Origin: Nitrospinae bacterium RIFCSPLOWO2_12_FULL_45_22
GTDB taxonomy: Bacteria > 2-12-FULL-45-22
NCBI GenBank assembly: GCA_001803565.1
Contig: MHDQ01000035.1
Coordinates: 1-8,967, forward strand
Reading direction: 5' to 3'
DNA length: 8,967 nt
In this document: positions 1 through 8,918 of the stretch, piece after piece
Layout: the number at the start of each line of letters is the position of its first letter
Position numbering within the stretch: the first letter of the stretch is position 1
The notes under the pieces: generated by a model
The model's input: only the letters and a program-made list of their open reading frames with translations
Told to the model about the DNA's origin: nothing
The model's database searches: none
Translations under genes and position numbers: made by a program

Positions 1-2
1 AA

Positions 3-134
3 TACATGACCCAGGAAGAGGTCAAGAAATTATTTGACCAGATCAGAGACAAAAGAGACTGGACTTTCTTTGTCTTAATCTATCATTATGGCTTGAGGGG
101 AAGTAAGGCTTGCCGGATCCAAAGGACAAATTAA
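3..134 (+). pseudogene. Tyrosine recombinase/integrase remnant, truncated and cut by the window edge
   Basis: The frame opening at base 3 encodes about 43 residues and ends at TAA 132-134. It reads MTQEEVKKLF, then a hydrophobic helix ending in FVLIYHYGLRGSKACRI. This matches the start of the catalytic domain of phage-integrase/XerC-type recombinases: the helix 'LTxEEVxxLL', then 'YxxGLRxSE', whose Arg (bases 96-98) is the first catalytic residue. The rest of the domain (Lys, HxxR and the nucleophilic Tyr) is absent in this frame. A shifted frame from about base 125 continues with a lysine-rich stretch (LIPKNKRGAIK) that could be the next beta strands after a frameshift, but this is weak. The gene is probably a decayed recombinase whose N-terminal part lies outside the window. 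It is the only coding trace on the plus strand and converges on the carboxylase cluster. Confidence 0.55.
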
Positions 135-138
135 TTCC

Positions 139-177
139 AAAAAATAAGAGGGGAGCGATCAAAAATCTCCCCCCTCT
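139..177 (-). terminator. Rho-independent terminator of the carboxylase cluster
   Basis: Read on the minus strand, bases 177-167 (AGAGGGGGGAG) pair with 155-147 (CTCCCCTCT). Seven pairs are perfect at the base and a two-base bulge lies above. The strand then continues at once as TATTTTTT (146-139). A GC-rich stem followed by a U tract is the classic intrinsic terminator. It lies 77 bp beyond the stop of the last minus-strand gene, so it most likely ends the transcript of the five-gene cluster. Confidence 0.8.
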
Positions 178-197
178 GATAAATGTTTTTACAAAAT

Positions 198-257
198 GTA
201 GGGGCGAACCTATGTGTTCGCCCGAAAAACAGGACAGACACGCAGGTCTGCCCCTAC
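198..257. repeat. Nested palindromic intergenic repeat (three-stem element)
   Basis: The ends form a perfect 8-bp inverted repeat, GTAGGGGC (198-205) with GCCCCTAC (250-257). Two hairpins lie inside: GGGCGAAC (202-209) with GTTCGCCC (216-223) around a 6-base loop, perfect; and GGACAGAC (232-239) with GTCTGCCC (246-253) around a 6-base loop, 7 of 8 paired. The arms overlap, so the element can fold either as a long hairpin with a cloverleaf-like head or as two side-by-side hairpins. From memory, dispersed repeats with the same GTAGGGGCG...CGCCC...CTGCCCCTAC plan are common between genes of environmental bacteria; no copy number can be given from this window. Its right edge contains the TAG stop codon (254-256) of the neighbouring ATPase gene. 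Confidence 0.8.
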
Positions 258-1237
258 TTTTCTGCCTCTTCTGCTAAAGCGGCGGAATCGGTGTTCTTTC
301 TCTGGATATTATCTCCTAATTGCACAAGGATTTTGTCTATGATCTGGTTAACAGACTTAGCGGCTTCACTTTCGGCGAAGGCATGGACAAAGGGTGTCCC
401 ATTATCAGATGCCCTGGCCAGACGGGCATCTAAGGGGATTTTACCCAGGAAGGGGACATCAATCTCTTCAGCCAGGATCTCTCCCCCCCCTTTCTGGAAT
501 ATATATTCTATGCCGCCACATTCTTCACATACGTAACCACTCATATTCTCTATGATCCCCAGGATTCTGATACCGGCCTTTTTAGCCAGCATAGCCGCCT
601 TATATGCTACCCCCTGGGAGACCTGAGAAGGTATGGTGACAATAACCACCCCAGCAGCATCAGGTAGGAATTGGAGGGTATTTGTAGTATCAGAGCTAGT
701 CCCGGGTGGTAAGTCGATCAGCAAGAAATCTCGCTCCCCAAATACCGTATGGGATAAGAATTCCTCGGTTGCATTTCTCCTCATCTCGTGGAACCAGGTC
801 AGTACCTCTTCCGATTTGATGAGATTGGCCATAGATAATATCTGGATCCCCATAGGTCCAGGGATCGGCAGTAACCCATCAGGGGATATCTGCATCTGTA
901 TGCCCATGGTTCCCAGCATCTTGGGGATGCAGGGGCCGTCGAAGTCCTGGTCCAATATAGTAACCTTAAAGTCCCGCATAGCCAGGCCCATCCCTAGATT
1001 GGCCGTAGTAATGCTCTTTCCTACACCACCTTTCCCGCCGGCCACAGGGATCTTATATTTTACCTGCGATAAAGCCGCCTTGGCCTGCTGCATCCTTCGG
1101 CGTTCGTAGATCTTAAACCTCTTGGGATCATCACAATCAAAGAATTTTTCACAAGATTCGCACCACCTGCCACAATTGAAATCTACATTTATCTCTAAGA
1201 TATCTCTCTCTACCGCACTTTCTTTCTTTTCCCTCAT
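254..1237 (-). CDS. Mrp/NBP35-family P-loop ATPase (copy 1, last gene of the cluster)
   Basis: This 327-residue cytoplasmic ATPase belongs to the Mrp/NBP35 (ApbC, MinD-like) family, whose members bind and transfer Fe-S clusters. The deviant Walker A is GGKGGVGKS at residues 67-75, with both signature lysines (69, 74). DQDFDGPCIPKMLG at 96-109 is the family's second motif. DLPPGTS at 175-181 is switch II/Walker B. ENMSGYVCEEC at 230-240 carries the CxxC that holds a bridging cluster in Mrp/Nbp35 dimers. A second cysteine set lies at the N-terminus: C22, C26, C29 and C35 (C-x3-C-x2-C-x5-C), recalling the N-terminal cluster motif of Nbp35, which plain bacterial Mrp lacks. The ATG is preceded by GGAGGAG, 16 bp after the UbiD-like gene, so the two are probably co-translated. 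The tail beyond about residue 305 is longer than in copy 2, and its TAG stop lies inside the adjacent repeat. The role is inferred as a cluster or electron donor, or an ATP-driven activator, for the UbiD partners. Confidence 0.9.
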   Translation of the reverse strand: MREKKESAVERDILEINVDFNCGRWCESCEKFFDCDDPKRFKIYERRRMQQAKAALSQVKYKIPVAGGKGGVGKSITTANLGMGLAMRDFKVTILDQDFDGPCIPKMLGTMGIQMQISPDGLLPIPGPMGIQILSMANLIKSEEVLTWFHEMRRNATEEFLSHTVFGERDFLLIDLPPGTSSDTTNTLQFLPDAAGVVIVTIPSQVSQGVAYKAAMLAKKAGIRILGIIENMSGYVCEECGGIEYIFQKGGGEILAEEIDVPFLGKIPLDARLARASDNGTPFVHAFAESEAAKSVNQIIDKILVQLGDNIQRKNTDSAALAEEAEK

Positions 1238-1253
1238 AATAACTCCTCCATTT

Positions 1254-2750
1254 TTACTTCTTCTTCCATGAAGCCCGTTCTTTTCCCTCTTCCCATACCC
1301 TTTTCATATCCTGAGGATAACCCCACTCCTGCCATTTATTACATATCTTCTCTATGGTCCTTTCTGCGTACATATCCCAAAAAGTTCCCCTGACAGGAAT
1401 ATCTCTAGTTGGGGACCATTCTAAGGGCCAGGTACAATCGAAGACCACTTTGGTAGTCCTTCCCAGGAGCCTATCCTCATAGCTAAGGTGGGGTAGGAGA
1501 GGTGTTGCCGGCTGATTATCGTAATAAGTTATCCCTTTTTTAGGATGGCACTTGGTAGCAAAGGCATGCAGAACTTGCTTGATATCGAATACATCTATAT
1601 CCTCATCGCAGACGAAGAGCTGCTGAAGATTCATACCGGTATTTTTGGTACCGAATAAAAGGGTAGCTATTCTATTAGCCACATTGCTATGGGGTTTTCC
1701 CACAGAGACTATGGCAGCATGAGAGACCATCTGGGGGGGTATGCTTATATCTACCACCGGGATACCATTAATCTCCATGGTGGTAAGCATATCCGACCTA
1801 GCCAGGACCGCAGCCATCATATCTGAATCATCTGTGGGGACACCCAGGCACGCAACACAATTGATGGGGTTATTTCTAAAGGTTATAGCAGTGACGCGAT
1901 AGGCTACCCGGGGCATCCGTGGTGAAGTCCTATAGCCCGTATATTCTCCCACGGGTCCTTCATAGAGCCGGAGGACATCCGGATCTACCACCCCTTCAAT
2001 GATAATCTCCGCATTAGCCGGGACGTATAATGGCTGTGAGACGCATTTAACCAGCTCAACGGGCTCCAGCCGCAGACCACCCGCCCAGTCTACCTCGCTC
2101 TTTCCCCGGCCATAAGGGGCAGCCGATACTATTGTGGTAAGGGGTTCAGTCCCTATGACAGCCGCCCAGGGCATGGGTTTCTTATTGGGAAGATACTTTC
2201 CATAAAACATAATACCTATATCTTCTTGCGGCAATAAAAGCCCCCCCAAAGTCGTCTCATTGTGGACCATAAGGTGGCACATGCCCCAATTAATCCAATC
2301 CGTATCGTAATCAGGAGTTGCTATGAACTGCCAGCTACCCAGGTAGCGGCCCCCATCACCCTCATGGATATAAGGGGCACAGAGCTCCAAAAGGTTGATA
2401 TCATCACCAGTAATGACATTCTCCTGGCAGGGAGCCTTATCTACAATTAGGGACTTTATAGGGTGTTTAGACCTCCTATGATATAGGTTCAATATTTCCG
2501 AAGGATGGAGGTCGGGGTCCAGGCCTATGGCAATAGCTGCCCGCCGGTAATTAGAGAATAGAGCCCCGGCTAAGCTACAGCCCGGGTAGTCCTTTATATT
2601 TTCCATGATAGGTGCTGGTGATCCTAGCTGATTAGCTAGCCTAACAATAGCTGAGGCCCCCAGGTCCCAGTCTATCTCCTCTTTTATCCTGATTGCCTCG
2701 CCGGAATCTACTAATGATGAAATATATCCTCTTATATCTCTAAAGGCCAT
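1254..2750 (-). CDS. UbiD-family (de)carboxylase-like protein, copy 1, with altered catalytic arginine
   Basis: This 498-residue protein has the normal UbiD length. UbiD enzymes use prenylated FMN to add or remove CO2 on aromatic or alpha,beta-unsaturated acids. Aligning by eye to the fungal Fdc1 numbering gives constant spacing. N154 matches N168 and E219 (SEVDWAGG) matches E233, both metal/cofactor ligands. E264 and E269 (YEGPVGEYTGY) match the catalytic E277 and E282. The catalytic R173 position is H159 in NWGMCH (codon CAC at 2274-2276), and the ligand H191 position is D177. Copy 2 in this window keeps the Arg. The two copies share QFIATPDYDTDWINWGM (141-157) and about 60% of the first 57 residues (35 of 57 counted). 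The C-terminal WPLEWSPTRDIPV segment is typical of the family. A strong AAGGAGGTGA site precedes the ATG, 21 bp after the 125-residue gene. It may be a structural or substrate-binding subunit rather than an ordinary decarboxylase. No signal peptide or membrane segment is seen. Confidence 0.92.
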   Translation of the reverse strand: MAFRDIRGYISSLVDSGEAIRIKEEIDWDLGASAIVRLANQLGSPAPIMENIKDYPGCSLAGALFSNYRRAAIAIGLDPDLHPSEILNLYHRRSKHPIKSLIVDKAPCQENVITGDDINLLELCAPYIHEGDGGRYLGSWQFIATPDYDTDWINWGMCHLMVHNETTLGGLLLPQEDIGIMFYGKYLPNKKPMPWAAVIGTEPLTTIVSAAPYGRGKSEVDWAGGLRLEPVELVKCVSQPLYVPANAEIIIEGVVDPDVLRLYEGPVGEYTGYRTSPRMPRVAYRVTAITFRNNPINCVACLGVPTDDSDMMAAVLARSDMLTTMEINGIPVVDISIPPQMVSHAAIVSVGKPHSNVANRIATLLFGTKNTGMNLQQLFVCDEDIDVFDIKQVLHAFATKCHPKKGITYYDNQPATPLLPHLSYEDRLLGRTTKVVFDCTWPLEWSPTRDIPVRGTFWDMYAERTIEKICNKWQEWGYPQDMKRVWEEGKERASWKKK

Positions 2751-2771
2751 TCTCTATTCACCTCCTTTGGA

Positions 2772-3149
2772 TTAGGTTAATACACCGGTCGTATGAGCAA
2801 CCCACTGCAGATCTTTACTCATCTCCAGTATTTCTATGGACCAATTTCCCGGAAATAGTAGACCCCGCTGGGATCGTACCAATAATATATCCTTATATTT
2901 CTTAGGCTCCTGACTTATCTTGGCCTTTACCATCCGGAAACAATACTTCATGCGCCGATTTTCTGGCGCCAATAATCTAATAGAGAAAGTTACCTCCTTA
3001 TCTTGTTCCCCCAATAGCTTGTCCCGGCTATCGTCAAGGATTATGGTGTCATAGACCTCTCTACCTTCCTTCTTTTTTATCTCATAGGGATCCTCGCCCC
3101 AGCTAAAACCCTTATGGACTGCTAAACGCCTGTTTGGTCTCTCGTGCAT
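2772..3149 (-). CDS. Unrecognised 125-residue protein within the UbiD/Mrp cluster
   Basis: I do not recognise a family. The protein is small, charged and soluble-looking, with no signal peptide, membrane helix or cysteine cluster (a single Cys at about residue 70). The N-terminal half is polar (LAVHKGFSWGEDPYEIKKK, then TIILDDSRDKLL). The second half alternates hydrophobic and charged residues in a beta-rich pattern (VTFSIRLLAP, YKDILLVRSQRGLLFPGNW, SIEILEMS), which could be a small beta-sandwich or a subunit-interaction domain. The ATG at 3147-3149 has a GGGAGG ribosome-binding site 8-9 bases upstream, and the gene ends 21 bp before a UbiD-like gene, so it is surely part of the operon. Heteromeric UbiD carboxylases such as phenylphosphate carboxylase contain small extra subunits, so an accessory subunit is a reasonable guess, but no homology supports it here. 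Confidence 0.8.
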   Translation of the reverse strand: MHERPNRRLAVHKGFSWGEDPYEIKKKEGREVYDTIILDDSRDKLLGEQDKEVTFSIRLLAPENRRMKYCFRMVKAKISQEPKKYKDILLVRSQRGLLFPGNWSIEILEMSKDLQWVAHTTGVLT

Positions 3150-3190
3150 TATGACTCCCTCCCTTTCTTCCAGTAATTAACTTGACAATG

Positions 3191-3335
3191 AATTTTCTTT
3201 TTGGACGCCGATGAGCGCAGATTTAGCCGATTTTAGGATAAAAAGTAAGCAGACAACTGGTTACGGCTTACTGCTCCCTATTTTCACTTTAATTTTATCT
3301 GTGTGAATCTGCGGGGCTCCGCGTCCTATAAAATT
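3191..3335. repeat. Long imperfect inverted repeat filling the 200-bp gap inside the cluster
   Basis: This is most of the 200-bp gap at 3150-3349. Left arm: AATTTT (3191-3196), GGACGC (3203-3208), CGCAGATT (3216-3223) and GATAAAA (3237-3243). The right arm carries their complements in reverse order: TTTTATC (3293-3299), AATCTGCG (3306-3313), GCGTCC (3321-3326) and AAAATT (3330-3335). The 21-base cores 3203-3223 and 3306-3326 match at 16 of 21 positions. A further 7-bp stem, AGTAAGC (3244-3250) with GCTTACT (3266-3272), sits near the centre. The phrases GACGCCGATGAGCGCAGATTTA and TGTGTGAATCTGCG, split here by bases in between, resemble from memory a dispersed intergenic repeat type of environmental bacteria. 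No ORF, recognisable terminator with a U tract, or convincing promoter was found inside. Confidence 0.65.
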
Positions 3336-3349
3336 TAACTTAGGGTATA

Positions 3350-4843
3350 TTATTCCCAGGAAACCAGCTTTTTGCCGGTTTCCCAAACCTTCTTCATATC
3401 TTCTTTGTAACCCAGCCTCTGCCATTGATGGCATACCCCTTCTATAACCCGCTCCGAGTATATATCCCAGAAGGAAGACCTAACGGGGATATCCCTGGTG
3501 GGAGACCAATCCAGGGGCCAGGTGCAGTCATAGACATTCCTGGCCGACTTCCCCCAGATCCTCTCCTCCATACTCAGATAAGGGGTCAAGGGCATGCCGA
3601 CCTGATTATCATAAAAGGTCGTTCCTCTCCGGGGATGCCATTTGGTAGCCAATACATGCAGGACTTGGTCTAGGTCATAAACATCAACATCCTCATCACA
3701 TACAATGACATCACGGATAGCCATGCCGGTATTTTTTGTCCCGAAGAGCAGACTGGCTATAAGATTAGCCAGGTTGGATTGGGGCTTCTTAATGGATACC
3801 ACCACAGTATGGCCCACCATTTCCGGGGGGACATGGAGCCCTAGCACCGGAATAGCATTGTCTTCCAGGACATTTAACATATCAGAGCGGCAGAGGATAG
3901 CGAAGGCCATATGGGAATCATCTACCGGTACTCCTAGAGGCGAGTGGGTATGGATCGGGTTATTCCTGTAGGTTATAGCTGTCACGTGGAAGGCGGTTCT
4001 GGGTGCCCGTGGAGATGTTCTATAACCGCTGTATTCACCCCAAGGTCCTTCATAAGCCCTATCCTCCAGCGTGGGGTTAACATACCCCTCGATGATAAAC
4101 TCGGCATTAGCAGGGACATAAAGGGGTTGAGTGACACACTTTACTAGCTCTACTGGCTCAAGCCTCAATCCCCCGGCCCAATCTACCTCGCTGCGGCCTA
4201 TACCATAAGGTGCCGCCGAGACAATAGTCGTTATCGGCTCTGTCCCTATAACAGTGGCCCAGGGCATCGGTTTTTTATTGGGCAGGTATTTAGTATAAAA
4301 CTGGTACCCTATATCTTGCATGGGCATTACCAGTCCGCCCAATATCCTTTCATTTTGGATCATCTGGCGGTACATCCCCCAGTTTATCCAATCGGTATCG
4401 TAATCTGGTGTAGCAATGAATTGCCAGGTAGCAATATAGCGGCCAGCATCACCATCATGGGGCATGGGTGACACAATATCAAATAAGTTTACCTCGTCCC
4501 CGGTTATAACATTCTCCTGACAGGCGCCACGATTTACTATTATAGGCTTTATAGGATGCTTAATCCTTTGATGGTAAGCATCCAGGACCGTTGCCCGGTC
4601 GGAATCGGGGTCTAACCCAATAGCAATAGCTGCTTTACGGTAATTAGAAAAATATCCCCCCATCATCCTCTGGCCAGGATAGTCCTTAATATTCTCCATG
4701 AGGGGTGCCGGCGCATTGAGTTGACATGCCAGCCGGATAATGCCCCCGGCCTCCATATCCCAATCTACCTCGTCCTTTATCCTTATTAGTTCTCCATGTC
4801 TTTCTAAAGCATCTAAAAAATCCCTTAAATCTCTATAAGCCAT
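3350..4843 (-). CDS. UbiD-family prenyl-FMN-dependent (de)carboxylase, copy 2, catalytic residues kept
   Basis: This 497-residue cytoplasmic enzyme is a paralogue of the UbiD-like protein at 1254-2750. By spacing against Fdc1 numbering, N154 and R159 (NWGMYR; Arg codon CGC at 4367-4369) match N168 and R173. E219 (SEVDWAGG) matches E233. E265 and E270 (YEGPWGEYSGY) match E277 and E282. The E-R-E catalytic set is therefore complete, and this is the likely active subunit. One departure is D177 (QDIG) where Fdc1 has the ligand H191; it is shared with copy 1. The tail has DCTWPLDWSPTRDIPV. The likely reaction is carboxylation or decarboxylation of an aromatic ring or acid, and the substrate is unknown. 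The ATG follows an AAGGGGGTG site, 15 bp after the Mrp-like gene, so the two are tightly coupled. A 200-bp inverted-repeat gap follows the gene. The prenyl-FMN cofactor must come from a UbiX encoded elsewhere. Confidence 0.94.
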   Translation of the reverse strand: MAYRDLRDFLDALERHGELIRIKDEVDWDMEAGGIIRLACQLNAPAPLMENIKDYPGQRMMGGYFSNYRKAAIAIGLDPDSDRATVLDAYHQRIKHPIKPIIVNRGACQENVITGDEVNLFDIVSPMPHDGDAGRYIATWQFIATPDYDTDWINWGMYRQMIQNERILGGLVMPMQDIGYQFYTKYLPNKKPMPWATVIGTEPITTIVSAAPYGIGRSEVDWAGGLRLEPVELVKCVTQPLYVPANAEFIIEGYVNPTLEDRAYEGPWGEYSGYRTSPRAPRTAFHVTAITYRNNPIHTHSPLGVPVDDSHMAFAILCRSDMLNVLEDNAIPVLGLHVPPEMVGHTVVVSIKKPQSNLANLIASLLFGTKNTGMAIRDVIVCDEDVDVYDLDQVLHVLATKWHPRRGTTFYDNQVGMPLTPYLSMEERIWGKSARNVYDCTWPLDWSPTRDIPVRSSFWDIYSERVIEGVCHQWQRLGYKEDMKKVWETGKKLVSWE

Positions 4844-4858
4844 CTTTACACCCCCTTC

Positions 4859-5818
4859 CTAATAACCAGCGCCATTGACTCCTATGCTTTCCAGTACCTT
4901 ATCAGTAATGATTTTTGTGGCCTTTGCTGCTTCGGTTTCCGGAAAGGCTTTTACAAAAGGTATCCCTTCATCAGCAGTTTTACTCAAAGAACCATCCAAA
5001 GGAATTTTGCCTAAAAAAGGTGCTTCTAACTGCCTGGCAAGGCTCTCACCTCCTCCACTAGCCAGGATATCATTCTTATGGCCACAAAATCGGCAAATAT
5101 GGCCACTCATATTTTCCACCACCCCCAGGATCCTGACATTAGCCTTCTTGCAAAGGAGAGCGGCCTTAAGGGCAATCCCTTGAGAAACTACTGAGGGGAT
5201 AGTAACCACTAAAGCACCATCTATGTCGGGTATGAATTCCATCGTATTTACCGAGTCAGCACTAGTTCCTGGGGGCAGGTCAATGATGAGAAAATCTCGT
5301 TCCCCATAATCTACATGGGACAAGAATTCCTCCGTGGCACCCCGCCTTAGATCGGTATACCAGGTGATGACCTGGTCTTTCTCCACCACATTCCCCATAG
5401 AGATTATCTGTATCCCCAGTGGACCTTCCACCGGTATGACCCCCTTATTGCCGATCTTAAGCCTTTCCCCCACAGTGCCCAACATCTTCGGCACACAGGA
5501 ACCATCAAAATCAGAATCTAATATACTTACCCTGTATCCCCTTAAGGCCAGGTCCATAGAGAAATTAACTGAAACGGTTGTTTTTCCCACCCCACCTTTG
5601 CCACCAACAATGGCGATCTTGTGCTTTATCCTTTTCATCTTTTCCTTAACCAGGCCCATACGGCCGGCATTATATATCTCCCATTTTCTGGGGCTGCGGC
5701 AATCGAAGAATCTCTCGCATTTGTCACACATGATGCCCCCAAATTCATTCACCGGGCAAGAGAAATCCACATTAAATCTTTCCACCGTTAGAGTAATTTT
5801 GTTAGATTCCTTCTCCAT
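4859..5818 (-). CDS. Mrp/NBP35-family P-loop ATPase (copy 2, first gene of the cluster)
   Basis: This 319-residue paralogue of the ATPase at 254-1237 has the deviant Walker A GGKGGVGKT at residues 72-80, DSDFDGSCVPKMLG at 101-114, DLPPGTS at 180-186, and ENMSGHICRFC at 235-245 with the bridging-cluster CxxC. The N-terminal extension holds C21, C31, C34 and C40, a C-x9-C-x2-C-x5-C pattern very close to the C-x13-C-x2-C-x5-C ferredoxin-like motif of Nbp35. The last three cysteines (CDKCERFFDC) match copy 1 (CESCEKFFDC), while the spacing to the first differs. The family carries Fe-S clusters between partner proteins using ATP. Here the tight pairing with a UbiD gene suggests a dedicated partner. 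The ATG at 5816-5818 follows AGGAGG about 11 bases upstream. No promoter was convincing in the 111-bp gap before it. Confidence 0.92.
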   Translation of the reverse strand: MEKESNKITLTVERFNVDFSCPVNEFGGIMCDKCERFFDCRSPRKWEIYNAGRMGLVKEKMKRIKHKIAIVGGKGGVGKTTVSVNFSMDLALRGYRVSILDSDFDGSCVPKMLGTVGERLKIGNKGVIPVEGPLGIQIISMGNVVEKDQVITWYTDLRRGATEEFLSHVDYGERDFLIIDLPPGTSADSVNTMEFIPDIDGALVVTIPSVVSQGIALKAALLCKKANVRILGVVENMSGHICRFCGHKNDILASGGGESLARQLEAPFLGKIPLDGSLSKTADEGIPFVKAFPETEAAKATKIITDKVLESIGVNGAGY

Positions 5819-5929: not shown

Positions 5930-6367
5930 TTAATAAGGGAGTGTTATCATTGGTAATAGAGAACTTAGCACTTCATATGAAGGCTCTTTATGGACAAGGA
6001 TTGCTTTATACCCCATAGCCGACGCCACTATCCATGATTGCGCCGTGGTGAGCCCCAAGCTAGCCTTTATATCCCCGGCCTTTATTGTTATCCTCTCATC
6101 TATACCCACTATCTCTACCGGTAGCACCTTCATATAGAGGTAAAAATCTCGTGCACTTTCTTCGTTTCCTTCCTTCAAGATAGAATGATAACCCTCCATG
6201 ATACTCATAAAAGATGCTAAAACCCTGGCCCTGTTTATATAAGCCTCTCTCAAGATCTTTTCTACCTCATCAGCCCCTTTTTCATTCTCTATGAAGGTCA
6301 TTAACGCCGTTGTATCCAAAAGATATAATCTTTCCCTATCTGAATTATCCCTTGCCTTTCCTTTCAA
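5930..6367 (-). CDS. PIN-domain protein, VapC-like toxin with degenerate active site
   Basis: This 145-residue PIN-domain protein starts at TTG (6365-6367). The start is supported by AAGGAG (6382-6377) at an ideal 9-base spacing, and no in-frame ATG suits the domain. It overlaps the end of the antitoxin gene by 23 bp, the usual layout of coupled toxin-antitoxin pairs. VapC toxins are Mg-dependent ribonucleases using four acidic residues. Here D18 (LLDTTAL) and E58 (IMEGYHSI) are present. In the third motif, TTAQSWIVASA, the usual Asp is Q110. In the fourth, LVHKEPSY, the usual Asp is E128. Activity may therefore be reduced or lost, or D99/E91 nearby may substitute. The stop TAA (5930-5932) lies 111 bp before the Mrp-like gene, with no terminator visible between them. 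Confidence 0.8.
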   Translation of the reverse strand: MKGKARDNSDRERLYLLDTTALMTFIENEKGADEVEKILREAYINRARVLASFMSIMEGYHSILKEGNEESARDFYLYMKVLPVEIVGIDERITIKAGDIKASLGLTTAQSWIVASAMGYKAILVHKEPSYEVLSSLLPMITLPY

Positions 6368-6587
6368 TACCTCTCTCTCCTTCCCGCCCTTCAGATAAGG
6401 ATTTAGAAAGACCGCGTCCCTTATACATACCCCGCACCATAGCGATAGGATCTTCCGGTACAGGAACTACTATCATTACCTTTCCGCCATCTATCCACTC
6501 CAGTTGGGATTTGGAGGTGATGTTAAATTTCTTGCGCATCTCTGTGGGTATAACGGTCTGGAATCTGGCTGATACCTTGGTTTTCAC
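6345..6587 (-). CDS. AbrB/MazE/SpoVT-type antitoxin, DNA-binding
   Basis: This 80-residue protein has a swapped-hairpin AbrB domain over about residues 2-45. VSARFQTVIPTEMRKKFNI is the signature loop-helix, followed by a beta strand GGKVMIVVPVP. Members bind DNA as dimers, repress their own promoter and neutralise the partner toxin with their C-terminus. The C-terminal 30 residues here are charged and low in complexity (SLSEGREGERGIERKGKG), as expected for an unfolded toxin-binding tail. The start is GTG (6585-6587), six bases after an AAAGGGG site. The tail overlaps the PIN gene start, which supports translational coupling. The promoter and palindrome just upstream fit autoregulation. Confidence 0.82.
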   Translation of the reverse strand: MKTKVSARFQTVIPTEMRKKFNITSKSQLEWIDGGKVMIVVPVPEDPIAMVRGMYKGRGLSKSLSEGREGERGIERKGKG

Positions 6588-6675: not shown

Positions 6676-6702
6676 GACAAATTAATTTTTTATTTTGTCT
6701 TG
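6673..6702 (-). terminator. Weak stem-loop at the end of the cyclase gene, possible terminator
   Basis: CAAGACAAA (6673-6681) and TTTGTCTTG (6694-6702) are a perfect 9-bp inverted repeat with a 12-base loop, spanning the cyclase stop codon. On the minus strand the stem is followed by CAATATTTATTTTT, which is U-rich but not a clean tract. The stem is AT-rich and weak, and its base overlaps the -35 box of the downstream promoter, so a structural or regulatory role is also possible. Confidence 0.4.
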
Positions 6703-8918
6703 AAGGTAAATATACCATCCCAGTCTGTGGGGGGTGGGGATTGGATAAGCTGGTCACAACGGGATAAATAGAGTTGAGAGGGGTGGTCCTGGGGGTTTAA
6801 TTGGAGGGCTTTTTGAAAGAGGGCGATAGCTTCAAGCCAGTTTTTTTGCCGGTAATAGGCCAGGGCCTTATGAAAGAGAGTTACCAATTCCTGGTCTTTA
6901 TCAGGAGCGTCTAGCCGGTTTAGTACTTCATATATCCTTACTGGTTTATCTTTCCCTTTTACCCTTACCAGGTCTAACTCACGGCAGAGGATCTGGTCTT
7001 TAATATTTTCATAGGTAAATTCGCTAATGATAATATTAGTCCCGTATTCTTTATTTAAACCTTCCAGGCGGGAACCCAGATTGACATTATCTCCTAAGAC
7101 GGTATAATCAAACCGGCTCTCTGAGCCCATGTTTCCTACTACCATCCAGCCGGTATTAATTCCTATCCCGGCTGCTAATTTAGGGGTACCGGGTGTTTGC
7201 TCTTCTTTCTGCATTTCATATAATTCCTGAGTCATATCTAAAGCGGCCAGACAGGCCCTTAAGGCATGGTCTTGCTGGGGTAACGGGGCGCCAAAGATAG
7301 CCATAATGGCATCACCCATATATTTATCTACCAGGCCTTCGTGGCGGAAGACAAGATTGGTCATCCGGGTCAGATATTGATTGAGAAAGTGCACCAGGGC
7401 TTCAGGCTCCATCTGTTCAGAGATAGTAGTAAAACCGCGGATATCAGAGAATAATACGGTAAGTTCTTTCTTTTCCCCACCTAAGCGCAGTTGCTCGGGG
7501 TTCTTCAACATCTCGCTTACCACCGAAGGGGCTACATAATACTGGAAGGCCCCCCGGATCTTCCTCTTCTCCCGCTCCTCAGTCATATAGTTAAAGGCTG
7601 TTATCCCCAGATAGACCAAAACTATATTTAAGCCAGGATAGACAATGCCCAACCACTGGTTGAACCGCTGGAAGAAATACCGGTCAATAAAGAAATAGGC
7701 CAGGAACACCAGGACAACAAATAAGAAGCCCCAGGTTGCCCTTATCCTCCCCAGTGTAAGGGAAAGTATCAAGCCGGTTAAGATAATGGCTATGATATTA
7801 AGGATCGCAGTCCAGTTAGGCCGGGTAAGGTAGTCCTGGTGGAGTAAATTATCAATGATATTGGCATGGATTTCTAAGCCCGGGAAGACACTGCTGAACG
7901 GCATGACTCGTAAATCATAAATACCCACCGCAGTAGCACCAATGAGGGCGATCTTATCTTTAAATAAGGTGGGCGAGAGCCGTCCTTTGAGTAGGTCAGA
8001 GAACGAATAATGCGGAAAGGTCTTGGCCTGGCCCCGATAATTAATCAGTAACCGGCCCTGTTCATTGGTAAGGAGGCGATGCTGGCCCAGGCGGATCTCC
8101 TCTACGCCAAAGTCTGCTACCTGGACCGATAAAGTTTCTTCTTCCAGATATTTTTTCACTATTTCTACGGTAAAAGGAGAATAGAGTTGGTCATGGTATT
8201 TAACTACCAGGGGAATGGAGCGGATAGAACCGTCCTGATCCGGAAAGATATTAAAAAAGCCAGAACCACTTACTGCAGCCGCTAATGAGGGTAGGGGACT
8301 CTCGACGGCAAAGGCCTTTACCAGTGGGAAGTCTTTGGCTCTACGGGATTTGAAGCGTGTAAGTGAATAGCCCGTAGGGAGGTCCTGGTCTTTTTGGGCT
8401 ACGGTTTTCTGGCCGGTTAGCTCCTCGGGTGAGGTATAGAAGAAATAGCCCAGCACTACTTTTCCGGCCTTCTTTATGGCCTGGGCTAACAACTCATCGG
8501 GTGAGCGCTCCTTTTCCCAGGACTCTAACCACTGCTCTAATGACGGTTCCTTTAAGCCTAGATCCCGAACTTTCTCTTTAAAAGACTGTACTGTCCTTGA
8601 GTCGCTTTCTTGCTCGGGCTCGGAAAAAACTATATCTATGCCGATGACCTTTACGCCATATTGGCTCAGGAGGTCTAATCCCTGGGCTATCACCCGTCTG
8701 GACCATGGCCACCGGCCTAATTCATCAAGGCTCTTCTCATCTATGGTTACCAGAACTATCTCGCTGCCTGGCTTTTCTGTTCCACGGGCCAGGAACTGTA
8801 AATCCAGGGCCTTTAACTCGATGAATTCCAGGAAGGGTATCTTGAGTAAGTAGAGGCAAACTACACCCAGGGTAATTAAGACCCCTAGCTTAAAGGCATT
8901 TATCCGCCATAGCTTCAT
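6690..8918 (-). CDS. CHASE2-domain class III adenylate cyclase with C-terminal TPR
   Basis: This 742-residue inner-membrane signalling enzyme is predicted to make cAMP from ATP. Residues about 11-28 form a first membrane helix. About 30-350 form an extracytoplasmic CHASE2 sensor domain (IVLVTIDEKSLDELGRWPWSR is typical of its start; DKIALIGATAVGIYDLR and FPGLEIHANIIDNLL of its end). Three helices follow at about 372-390, 395-413 and 422-443. The cyclase domain spans about 485-665. The metal-binding Asp are D492 (FSDIRGF) and D536 (KYMGD). Adenine selection by K532 and D604 favours ATP over GTP. N613 and R617 (NVNLGSRLE) are transition-state residues. All catalytic residues are present. Residues about 677-720 resemble a TPR motif. 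The frame is open back to a TAG at 8958-8960, with no other start codon, so ATG 8918 is chosen, yet no clear ribosome-binding site precedes it. Bases 8919-8967 hold nothing else I can support. The stimulus is unknown, and no link to the carboxylase genes is evident beyond shared direction. Confidence 0.93.
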   Translation of the reverse strand: MKLWRINAFKLGVLITLGVVCLYLLKIPFLEFIELKALDLQFLARGTEKPGSEIVLVTIDEKSLDELGRWPWSRRVIAQGLDLLSQYGVKVIGIDIVFSEPEQESDSRTVQSFKEKVRDLGLKEPSLEQWLESWEKERSPDELLAQAIKKAGKVVLGYFFYTSPEELTGQKTVAQKDQDLPTGYSLTRFKSRRAKDFPLVKAFAVESPLPSLAAAVSGSGFFNIFPDQDGSIRSIPLVVKYHDQLYSPFTVEIVKKYLEEETLSVQVADFGVEEIRLGQHRLLTNEQGRLLINYRGQAKTFPHYSFSDLLKGRLSPTLFKDKIALIGATAVGIYDLRVMPFSSVFPGLEIHANIIDNLLHQDYLTRPNWTAILNIIAIILTGLILSLTLGRIRATWGFLFVVLVFLAYFFIDRYFFQRFNQWLGIVYPGLNIVLVYLGITAFNYMTEEREKRKIRGAFQYYVAPSVVSEMLKNPEQLRLGGEKKELTVLFSDIRGFTTISEQMEPEALVHFLNQYLTRMTNLVFRHEGLVDKYMGDAIMAIFGAPLPQQDHALRACLAALDMTQELYEMQKEEQTPGTPKLAAGIGINTGWMVVGNMGSESRFDYTVLGDNVNLGSRLEGLNKEYGTNIIISEFTYENIKDQILCRELDLVRVKGKDKPVRIYEVLNRLDAPDKDQELVTLFHKALAYYRQKNWLEAIALFQKALQLNPQDHPSQLYLSRCDQLIQSPPPTDWDGIFTFKTK

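What the first reader, a model, noticed from the sequence alone, without database searches (positions are those of the whole stretch)
254..5818. Mirror-ordered cluster ATPase - UbiD - small protein - UbiD - ATPase: a candidate heteromeric carboxylase system
Seen: two UbiD paralogues, each directly beside its own Mrp/NBP35-type ATPase, flank an unrecognised 125-residue gene, all on one strand with 15-21 bp gaps apart from one 200-bp repeat-filled gap. A strong terminator ends the set. Known: UbiD enzymes use prenyl-FMN and normally need only UbiX. Multi-subunit UbiD carboxylases (phenylphosphate carboxylase; proposed benzene and naphthalene carboxylases) attack aromatics anaerobically. Inference: the ATPases supply Fe-S clusters, electrons or ATP-driven activation to an aromatic carboxylase made of two different UbiD subunits plus a small one. 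Duplication of an ATPase-UbiD pair alone would give tandem order, not mirror order, so the layout implies rearrangement or separate recruitment.
Basis: partly seen in the sequence, partly recalled or inferred. Interest (0 to 1): 0.8.

Follow-up and report, generated by a model that had tools for sequence, protein, structure and literature searches.

The report
Compact two-UbiD, two-ATPase carboxylase operon
A five-gene operon from a little-known bacterial phylum looks like a stripped-down version of the multi-protein enzymes that anaerobic bacteria use to attach CO2 to aromatic hydrocarbons such as naphthalene, and its small size could make the unexplained role of the attached ATPases easier to test.

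Summary
In detail: on the minus strand, ATPase, UbiD, small protein, UbiD, ATPase, with gaps of 15, 200, 21 and 16 bp and a terminator behind. The "unrecognised" small protein is a phenylphosphate-carboxylase gamma (PpcC)-like subunit. Both ATPases carry an Nbp35-type four-Cys N-terminus plus a CxxC; the housekeeping Mrp proteins examined lack the former. Related ATPases sit beside UbiD genes, often with gamma, in several anaerobes, including the published phenanthrene-degrading culture TRIP. Naphthalene carboxylase of N47 is reported to combine UbiD-like, ParA/MinD-ATPase-like and linker proteins. So this is a new, compact variant of a known kind. The same five genes in the same order occur in the only other genome held of this phylum (82-91% protein identity, synonymous sites near saturation), so the set is under strong selection. 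The UbiDs are sister paralogues. UbiD-A keeps the catalytic residues; UbiD-B has His for the catalytic Arg in both genomes. I propose one catalytic and one structural/regulatory UbiD joined by gamma, with the ATPase pair loading or reducing an Fe-S-dependent component. Carboxylase assignment is likely; the ATPase role is inferred. Whether the ATPases duplicated together with the UbiDs is unresolved.

The parts
4859..5818 (-). ATPase-A: Nbp35/Mrp-type P-loop ATPase, 319 aa, KGGVGKT Walker A, N-terminal CX9CX2CX5C, C-terminal CX2C
   Evidence: PF10609 E 7.5e-71; motifs and clade of UbiD-associated ATPases
3350..4843 (-). UbiD-A: putative catalytic subunit, PpcA-like, 497 aa; N154, R159, E265, E270 kept; Asp177 at the usual His metal-ligand position
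   Evidence: PF01977/20695/20696; TIGR02723 E 2.7e-117 but 392 bits < 564.6 cut-off; residues by alignment
4367..4369 (-). codon of Arg159 in UbiD-A (equivalent of catalytic Arg173 of Fdc1)
   Evidence: alignments
3150..3349 (-). 200-bp gap holding a genome-interspersed imperfect palindromic repeat; in the second genome the same gap is 125 bp and holds a different, very stable foldback
2772..3149 (-). gamma-like small subunit (PpcC family) with about 30-residue N-terminal extension, 125 aa
   Evidence: PF09662 26.9 bits > 25; aligns with small proteins beside UbiD genes of other loci
1254..2750 (-). UbiD-B: paralogue of UbiD-A (64.5% identical), 498 aa, catalytic Arg replaced by His159
2274..2276 (-). 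codon of His159 in UbiD-B (Arg in UbiD-A and in nearly all relatives)
   Evidence: conserved in the second genome
254..1237 (-). ATPase-B: Nbp35/Mrp-type P-loop ATPase, 327 aa, N-terminal CX3CX2CX5C, C-terminal CX2C
   Evidence: PF10609 E 5.2e-70
139..177 (-). intrinsic terminator: G+C-rich hairpin followed by UAUUUUUU
198..257 (-). long hairpin directly behind (and just overlapping the end of) ATPase-B, no other copy found in this genome

Best explanation
The five genes form one operon for a compact ATPase-containing UbiD arylcarboxylase of the naphthalene/phenanthrene-carboxylase kind. UbiD-A binds prenyl-FMN (made by the UbiX encoded elsewhere in the genome) and carries out CO2 addition to, or removal from, an aromatic ring. 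UbiD-B, a duplicate of UbiD-A without the catalytic Arg, is kept as a non-catalytic structural or regulatory partner. The gamma subunit joins or positions the UbiDs. The two Nbp35-type ATPases form a pair with a bridging CxxC [4Fe-4S] cluster and an N-terminal [4Fe-4S] cluster; with ATP they most likely deliver an Fe-S cluster or low-potential electrons needed to mature or activate the carboxylase. Shown: gene content, conservation and purifying selection, family relationships, active-site change, ATPase motifs, recurrent gene neighbourhood. Inferred: complex formation, direction, substrate, and what the ATPases do.
For: Family hits. Same five genes and order in the only other genome of the phylum held, protein identity 82-91% with synonymous differences of 0.66-0.75 per site, and dN/dS about 0.03-0.04 where computable (UbiD-B 0.033, so not a decaying copy). 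ATPases of this type, all with a CX(3-9)CX2CX5C N-terminus, form one clade apart from housekeeping Mrp, which lacks it, and sit beside UbiD genes in most loci examined, several with a gamma gene: TRIP, a Syntrophobacteraceae MAG, a Clostridia MAG, G076, and a second cluster in the window's own genome. Fused double ATPases occur in four loci, supporting action as a pair. Literature: N47 cluster of UbiD-like, two ParA/MinD-like and linker proteins (PMC10570749); proposed 750-kDa complex and apparent ATP need (PMC12016498). UbiX present. BzdN/BzdO-like genes beside the genome's second cluster.
Against: No aryl-CoA ligase gene lies beside the five genes among the neighbours scanned in either genome; the window contig is only 9 kb. 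Equivalog cut-offs for PpcA and PpcC are not met. The cluster lacks the two other UbiD lineages that accompany the ATPases in the TRIP, G076 and Syntrophobacteraceae clusters, so substrate may differ. Two fused ATPase genes (G016, G015) have no UbiD gene in the stretch read. No interaction, expression or activity data.
Confidence: 0.62

Rival explanations
1. The ATPases are dedicated ATP-driven electron donors (NifH-like logic), keeping prenyl-FMN or an Fe-S centre of the complex in the active redox state, not cluster carriers.
For: Same P-loop superfamily as NifH (weak NifH-family hits); extra N-terminal four-Cys site resembling that of NUBP1 (PMC10108433); ATP dependence of naphthalene carboxylation reported but unexplained (PMC12016498).
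Against: Best matches are Fe-S carrier families (MrpORP/ApbC), not NifH; the related phenylphosphoamidate carboxylase of D. anilini is described as ATP-independent (PMC7500099).
Confidence: 0.25
2. A phenylphosphate-carboxylase-like enzyme for a hydroxylated or otherwise activated aromatic, with the ATPases as accessory cluster-loading factors.
For: UbiDs fall in a clade with PpcA-type enzymes (99/99); gamma is PpcC-like.
Against: PpcA/PpcC equivalog cut-offs not met; Asp at the metal-ligand position where PpcA-type rows have His; no phenylphosphate synthase nearby; PpcA-type loci found here carry no such ATPase in the stretch held.
Confidence: 0.15
3. A decarboxylase acting on an aromatic acid in the catabolic direction, not a carboxylase.
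For: Most UbiD enzymes with solved structures are named decarboxylases.
Against: Closest multi-subunit, ATPase-containing relatives are proposed carboxylases; direction cannot be read from sequence.
Confidence: 0.15
4. Chance neighbours: unrelated genes that happen to lie together.
For: None beyond the short contig.
Against: Same order in a second family of the phylum despite GC 47% versus 60% and near-saturated synonymous sites; recurrent ATPase-UbiD-gamma neighbourhoods elsewhere.
Confidence: 0.02

Closest known systems
Naphthalene carboxylase cluster of culture N47 and phenanthrene carboxylase genes (apa) of culture TRIP
   Same: UbiD-like proteins plus ParA/MinD-type ATPases plus small linker proteins in one cluster (PMC10570749, PMC13101529); TRIP ATPases read here carry the same four-Cys signature and fall in the same clade.
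   Different: Published clusters have three to four (N47) or six (TRIP apa) UbiD-like genes, and the TRIP ATPases are a tandem pair of two lineages; here only two sister UbiDs, and two ATPases of the ATP1-containing clade flank them in mirror order.
Phenylphosphate carboxylase (Ppc, Thauera aromatica)
   Same: PpcA-like UbiDs and a PpcC-like gamma.
   Different: No ATPases in Ppc (own knowledge); equivalog cut-offs not met; Asp for His at the metal-ligand position.
Anaerobic benzene carboxylase AbcAD
   Same: Proposed two-gene UbiD-type arylcarboxylase (PMC5852087).
   Different: AbcAD sequences were not compared here; the described cluster has bzlA and ubiX close by, not found beside these genes.
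Nbp35/Cfd1 (NUBP1/NUBP2) and bacterial Mrp/ApbC Fe-S carriers
   Same: Deviant Walker A ATPase, C-terminal CxxC, and a CX2CX5C N-terminal core as in NUBP1 (PMC10108433).
   Different: N-terminal spacing CX3 or CX9 in place of CX13; genomic coupling to UbiD instead of general cluster assembly.

Membership tests
ATPase-containing UbiD arylcarboxylase (naphthalene/phenanthrene carboxylase type) | two or more UbiD-like genes in one cluster | tested here: met
ATPase-containing UbiD arylcarboxylase (naphthalene/phenanthrene carboxylase type) | ParA/MinD-type ATPases in the same cluster, of the same clade as those of a published culture (TRIP) | tested here: met
ATPase-containing UbiD arylcarboxylase (naphthalene/phenanthrene carboxylase type) | small linker/gamma protein(s) | tested here: met
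ATPase-containing UbiD arylcarboxylase (naphthalene/phenanthrene carboxylase type) | the two further UbiD lineages found with the ATPases in TRIP, G076 and Syntrophobacteraceae | tested here: not met
   absent from the five genes; present in the genome's other cluster on C5/C231. Hence filed as a variant, not a member proper
ATPase-containing UbiD arylcarboxylase (naphthalene/phenanthrene carboxylase type) | carboxylation of an unsubstituted aromatic | not testable with these tools
   needs an assay
Phenylphosphate carboxylase | alpha subunit at equivalog level (TIGR02723) | tested here: not met
   403 and 392 bits against 564.6
Phenylphosphate carboxylase | gamma subunit | tested here: inconclusive
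   Pfam gathering score met (26.9 vs 25), TIGR02725 cut-off not met (31.1 vs 135.55)
Phenylphosphate carboxylase | phenylphosphate synthase genes nearby | tested here: inconclusive
   none among the neighbours scanned with Pfam, but the window contig is short and not all neighbours were scanned
prFMN-dependent UbiD enzyme | three UbiD domains and catalytic Arg-Glu-Glu | tested here: met
   UbiD-A meets both; UbiD-B meets the domains but has His for Arg
prFMN-dependent UbiD enzyme | UbiX in the genome | tested here: met
   G000:C6 and G001:C35
Nbp35/Mrp ATPase | deviant Walker A, C-terminal CxxC | tested here: met
Nbp35/Mrp ATPase | NUBP1 N-terminal CX13CX2CX5C | tested here: inconclusive
   CX2CX5C core kept, first spacing 3 or 9

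The most novel reading that the evidence does not exclude
A minimal ATP-driven arylcarboxylase: a pair of four-Cys Nbp35-type ATPases works as a dedicated reductase or activator of a prenyl-FMN carboxylase made of one catalytic and one catalytically dead UbiD subunit, which would explain the reported ATP requirement of anaerobic naphthalene carboxylation.
Probability: 0.2. Interest if true: 0.85.

Novelty: new variant of a known kind. Interest (0 to 1): 0.5.

Why it matters
How anaerobes activate unsubstituted aromatic hydrocarbons, and why ATPases accompany the UbiD carboxylases involved, is open. Cultured examples grow very slowly and have large clusters. A conserved five-gene version with clear sequence signatures (four-Cys ATPases, Asp at the metal-ligand position of the catalytic UbiD, Arg-to-His in its partner) is small enough to express whole, so the role of the ATPases and of the degenerate UbiD could be tested directly. 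It also widens the class to a phylum with only two genomes in the collection.

Tried and rejected
Papers on the N47 subunits (Koelschbach 2019) and mechanism (Heker 2023) are not held, so N47 details come from later papers that cite them. The benzene 'Magic' cluster of ORM2 was considered: the passages read show no UbiD or ATPase parallel. The gap repeat as a gene or regulatory RNA: it is an interspersed repeat with unremarkable folding (z -1.07). The 196-262 hairpin as a repeat family: only one copy in the genome at the threshold used. Fold of the gamma-like protein: model of medium confidence (pLDDT 74.9); no convincing PDB match (best Foldseek E 0.61; best VIA Z 2.6 over 63 residues, rmsd 3.8), so nothing is claimed. 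Sister relation of the two ATPases: unresolved (p-AU 0.405).

Full report
Observation. The five ORFs lie on the minus strand in the order and with the spacing reported: ATPase-A 5818-4859, UbiD-A 4843-3350, small 3149-2772, UbiD-B 2750-1254, ATPase-B 1237-254; gaps 15, 200, 21, 16 bp. A terminator hairpin (177-147) with a T run follows, behind a second long hairpin (257-198). The 200-bp gap holds an interspersed repeat.

What the genes are. Both large proteins hit all UbiD domains; both ATPases hit PF10609. It aligns with small proteins beside UbiD genes of many loci and has an N-terminal extension of about 30 residues. Both UbiDs are closest to PpcA (TIGR02723) but below the equivalog cut-off.

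Conservation. Only two genomes of this phylum are in the collection searched; both carry the small gene. Protein identities from ATPase-A to ATPase-B are 84, 91, 87, 88.5 and 82%, synonymous differences are 0.66-0.75 per site, GC of the stretch is 47% against 60%, and dN/dS is 0.03-0.04 where it can be computed. In a pattern-based scan of 84,980 species genomes no other locus exceeded 44% identity to UbiD-A, so the compact form is known only here; that scan needs a conserved peptide and can miss relatives.

Active sites. By alignment to solved relatives and to 80 UbiDs, UbiD-A keeps Asn154, Arg159, Glu265 and Glu270, the counterparts of Asn168, Arg173, Glu277 and Glu282 of Fdc1 (Fdc1 numbering and roles are from my own knowledge). 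UbiD-B has His at 159 in both genomes. Degenerate sites also occur in single UbiD subunits of the ATPase-associated clusters of TRIP, G076 and Syntrophobacteraceae (Arg to Cys, Glu to His, Ser or Gly). The PpcA-like UbiDs of ATPase-containing clusters share Asp at the position where Fdc1 and the PpcA-type rows have His; two distant UbiDs outside such clusters also have Asp there.

ATPases. All UbiD-associated ATPases read here have C-X3-C-X2-C-X5-C (or C-X4-C in a few partner domains, X9 in ATPase-A and its orthologue) near the N-terminus, and nearly all a CxxC near the C-terminus; the housekeeping Mrp rows lack the N-terminal motif and branch apart (96/88). NUBP1 has CX13CX2CX5C and pairs with NUBP2 over a bridging cluster (PMC10108433). 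In four loci two ATPases are fused into one 638-667-residue ORF, which suggests that they work as a pair. TRIP carries two tandem ATPase pairs next to UbiDs.

History. The UbiDs are sister paralogues that duplicated before the two genomes' families split (100/100) and lie in a clade with other ATPase-associated UbiDs and PpcA (99/99). Both ATPases belong to one clade with ATP1-type proteins (99/98), but whether they are each other's sisters is undecided (p-AU 0.405). The mirror layout therefore neither shows nor excludes joint duplication.

Genome context. The same genome holds a second, fuller cluster on contigs C231 and C5, whose ends overlap by 88 identical bases: ATPase, UbiD, UbiD, UbiD, 97-aa protein, UbiD, gamma, ATPase, beside genes matching bzdN and bzdO. 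The join lies inside similar UbiD copies and is likely but not certain. UbiX is present. PF06050 proteins, the superfamily of class I benzoyl-CoA reductase, number 67 matches in this genome and 29 in the relative. These facts fit an anaerobe that handles many aromatic or similar acyl-CoA compounds.

Comparison with the known. Later papers describe the N47 naphthalene carboxylase complex as three UbiD-like, two ParA/MinD ATPase-like and three linker proteins (PMC10570749); a review counts four UbiD genes among nine and reports a proposed 750-kDa complex and an apparent ATP requirement (PMC12016498); TRIP has similar genes with unknown function for the ATPases (PMC13101529). The window's operon belongs with these in content and ATPase clade but lacks two of their UbiD lineages, so I file it as a new variant. 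Complex formation, substrate, direction and ATPase function remain inferred.

Noticed in passing
G000 (67 places) and G001 (29 places), e.g. L125-L130: Very large expansion of PF06050 proteins (BcrB/BcrC, 2-hydroxyacyl-CoA dehydratase, double-cubane reductase superfamily), mostly in adjacent pairs; those scanned are only distantly like benzoyl-CoA reductase. This may deserve its own study.
   Followed up: partly
L035 (C5) 6378-12505 and L036 (C231) 1-3394: Second, fuller UbiD/ATPase/gamma cluster in the same genome, next to bzdN- and bzdO-like genes; the bzdO-like frame at C231:5340-6494 holds one TGA.
   Followed up: partly
L106 9338-11254, L107 4156-6096, L108 3646-5622, L121 1447-3450: Fused double four-Cys ATPases of 638-667 aa; in L106 and L107 no UbiD gene is in the stretch read; L107's lies between Prismane/CO-dehydrogenase-family and acyl-CoA dehydrogenase genes.
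   Followed up: partly
G008 contigs C35, C38, C41, C52 (L108-L111): One Clostridia MAG carries UbiD/ATPase clusters on four contigs, some with a gamma gene.
   Followed up: no
window 3150-3349 and L050 9495-9619: The only long gap in the operon holds a palindromic element in both genomes, but a different one; in the relative it is an extremely stable foldback (z -6.7). It might tune UbiD-A against downstream subunit levels.
   Followed up: partly
window 5930-6587: PIN-domain toxin and MazE-like antitoxin pair upstream of the operon; a PIN gene is also upstream in the relative.
   Followed up: no
window 6690-8918: CHASE2 - adenylate/guanylate cyclase - TPR protein, apparently unrelated.
   Followed up: no
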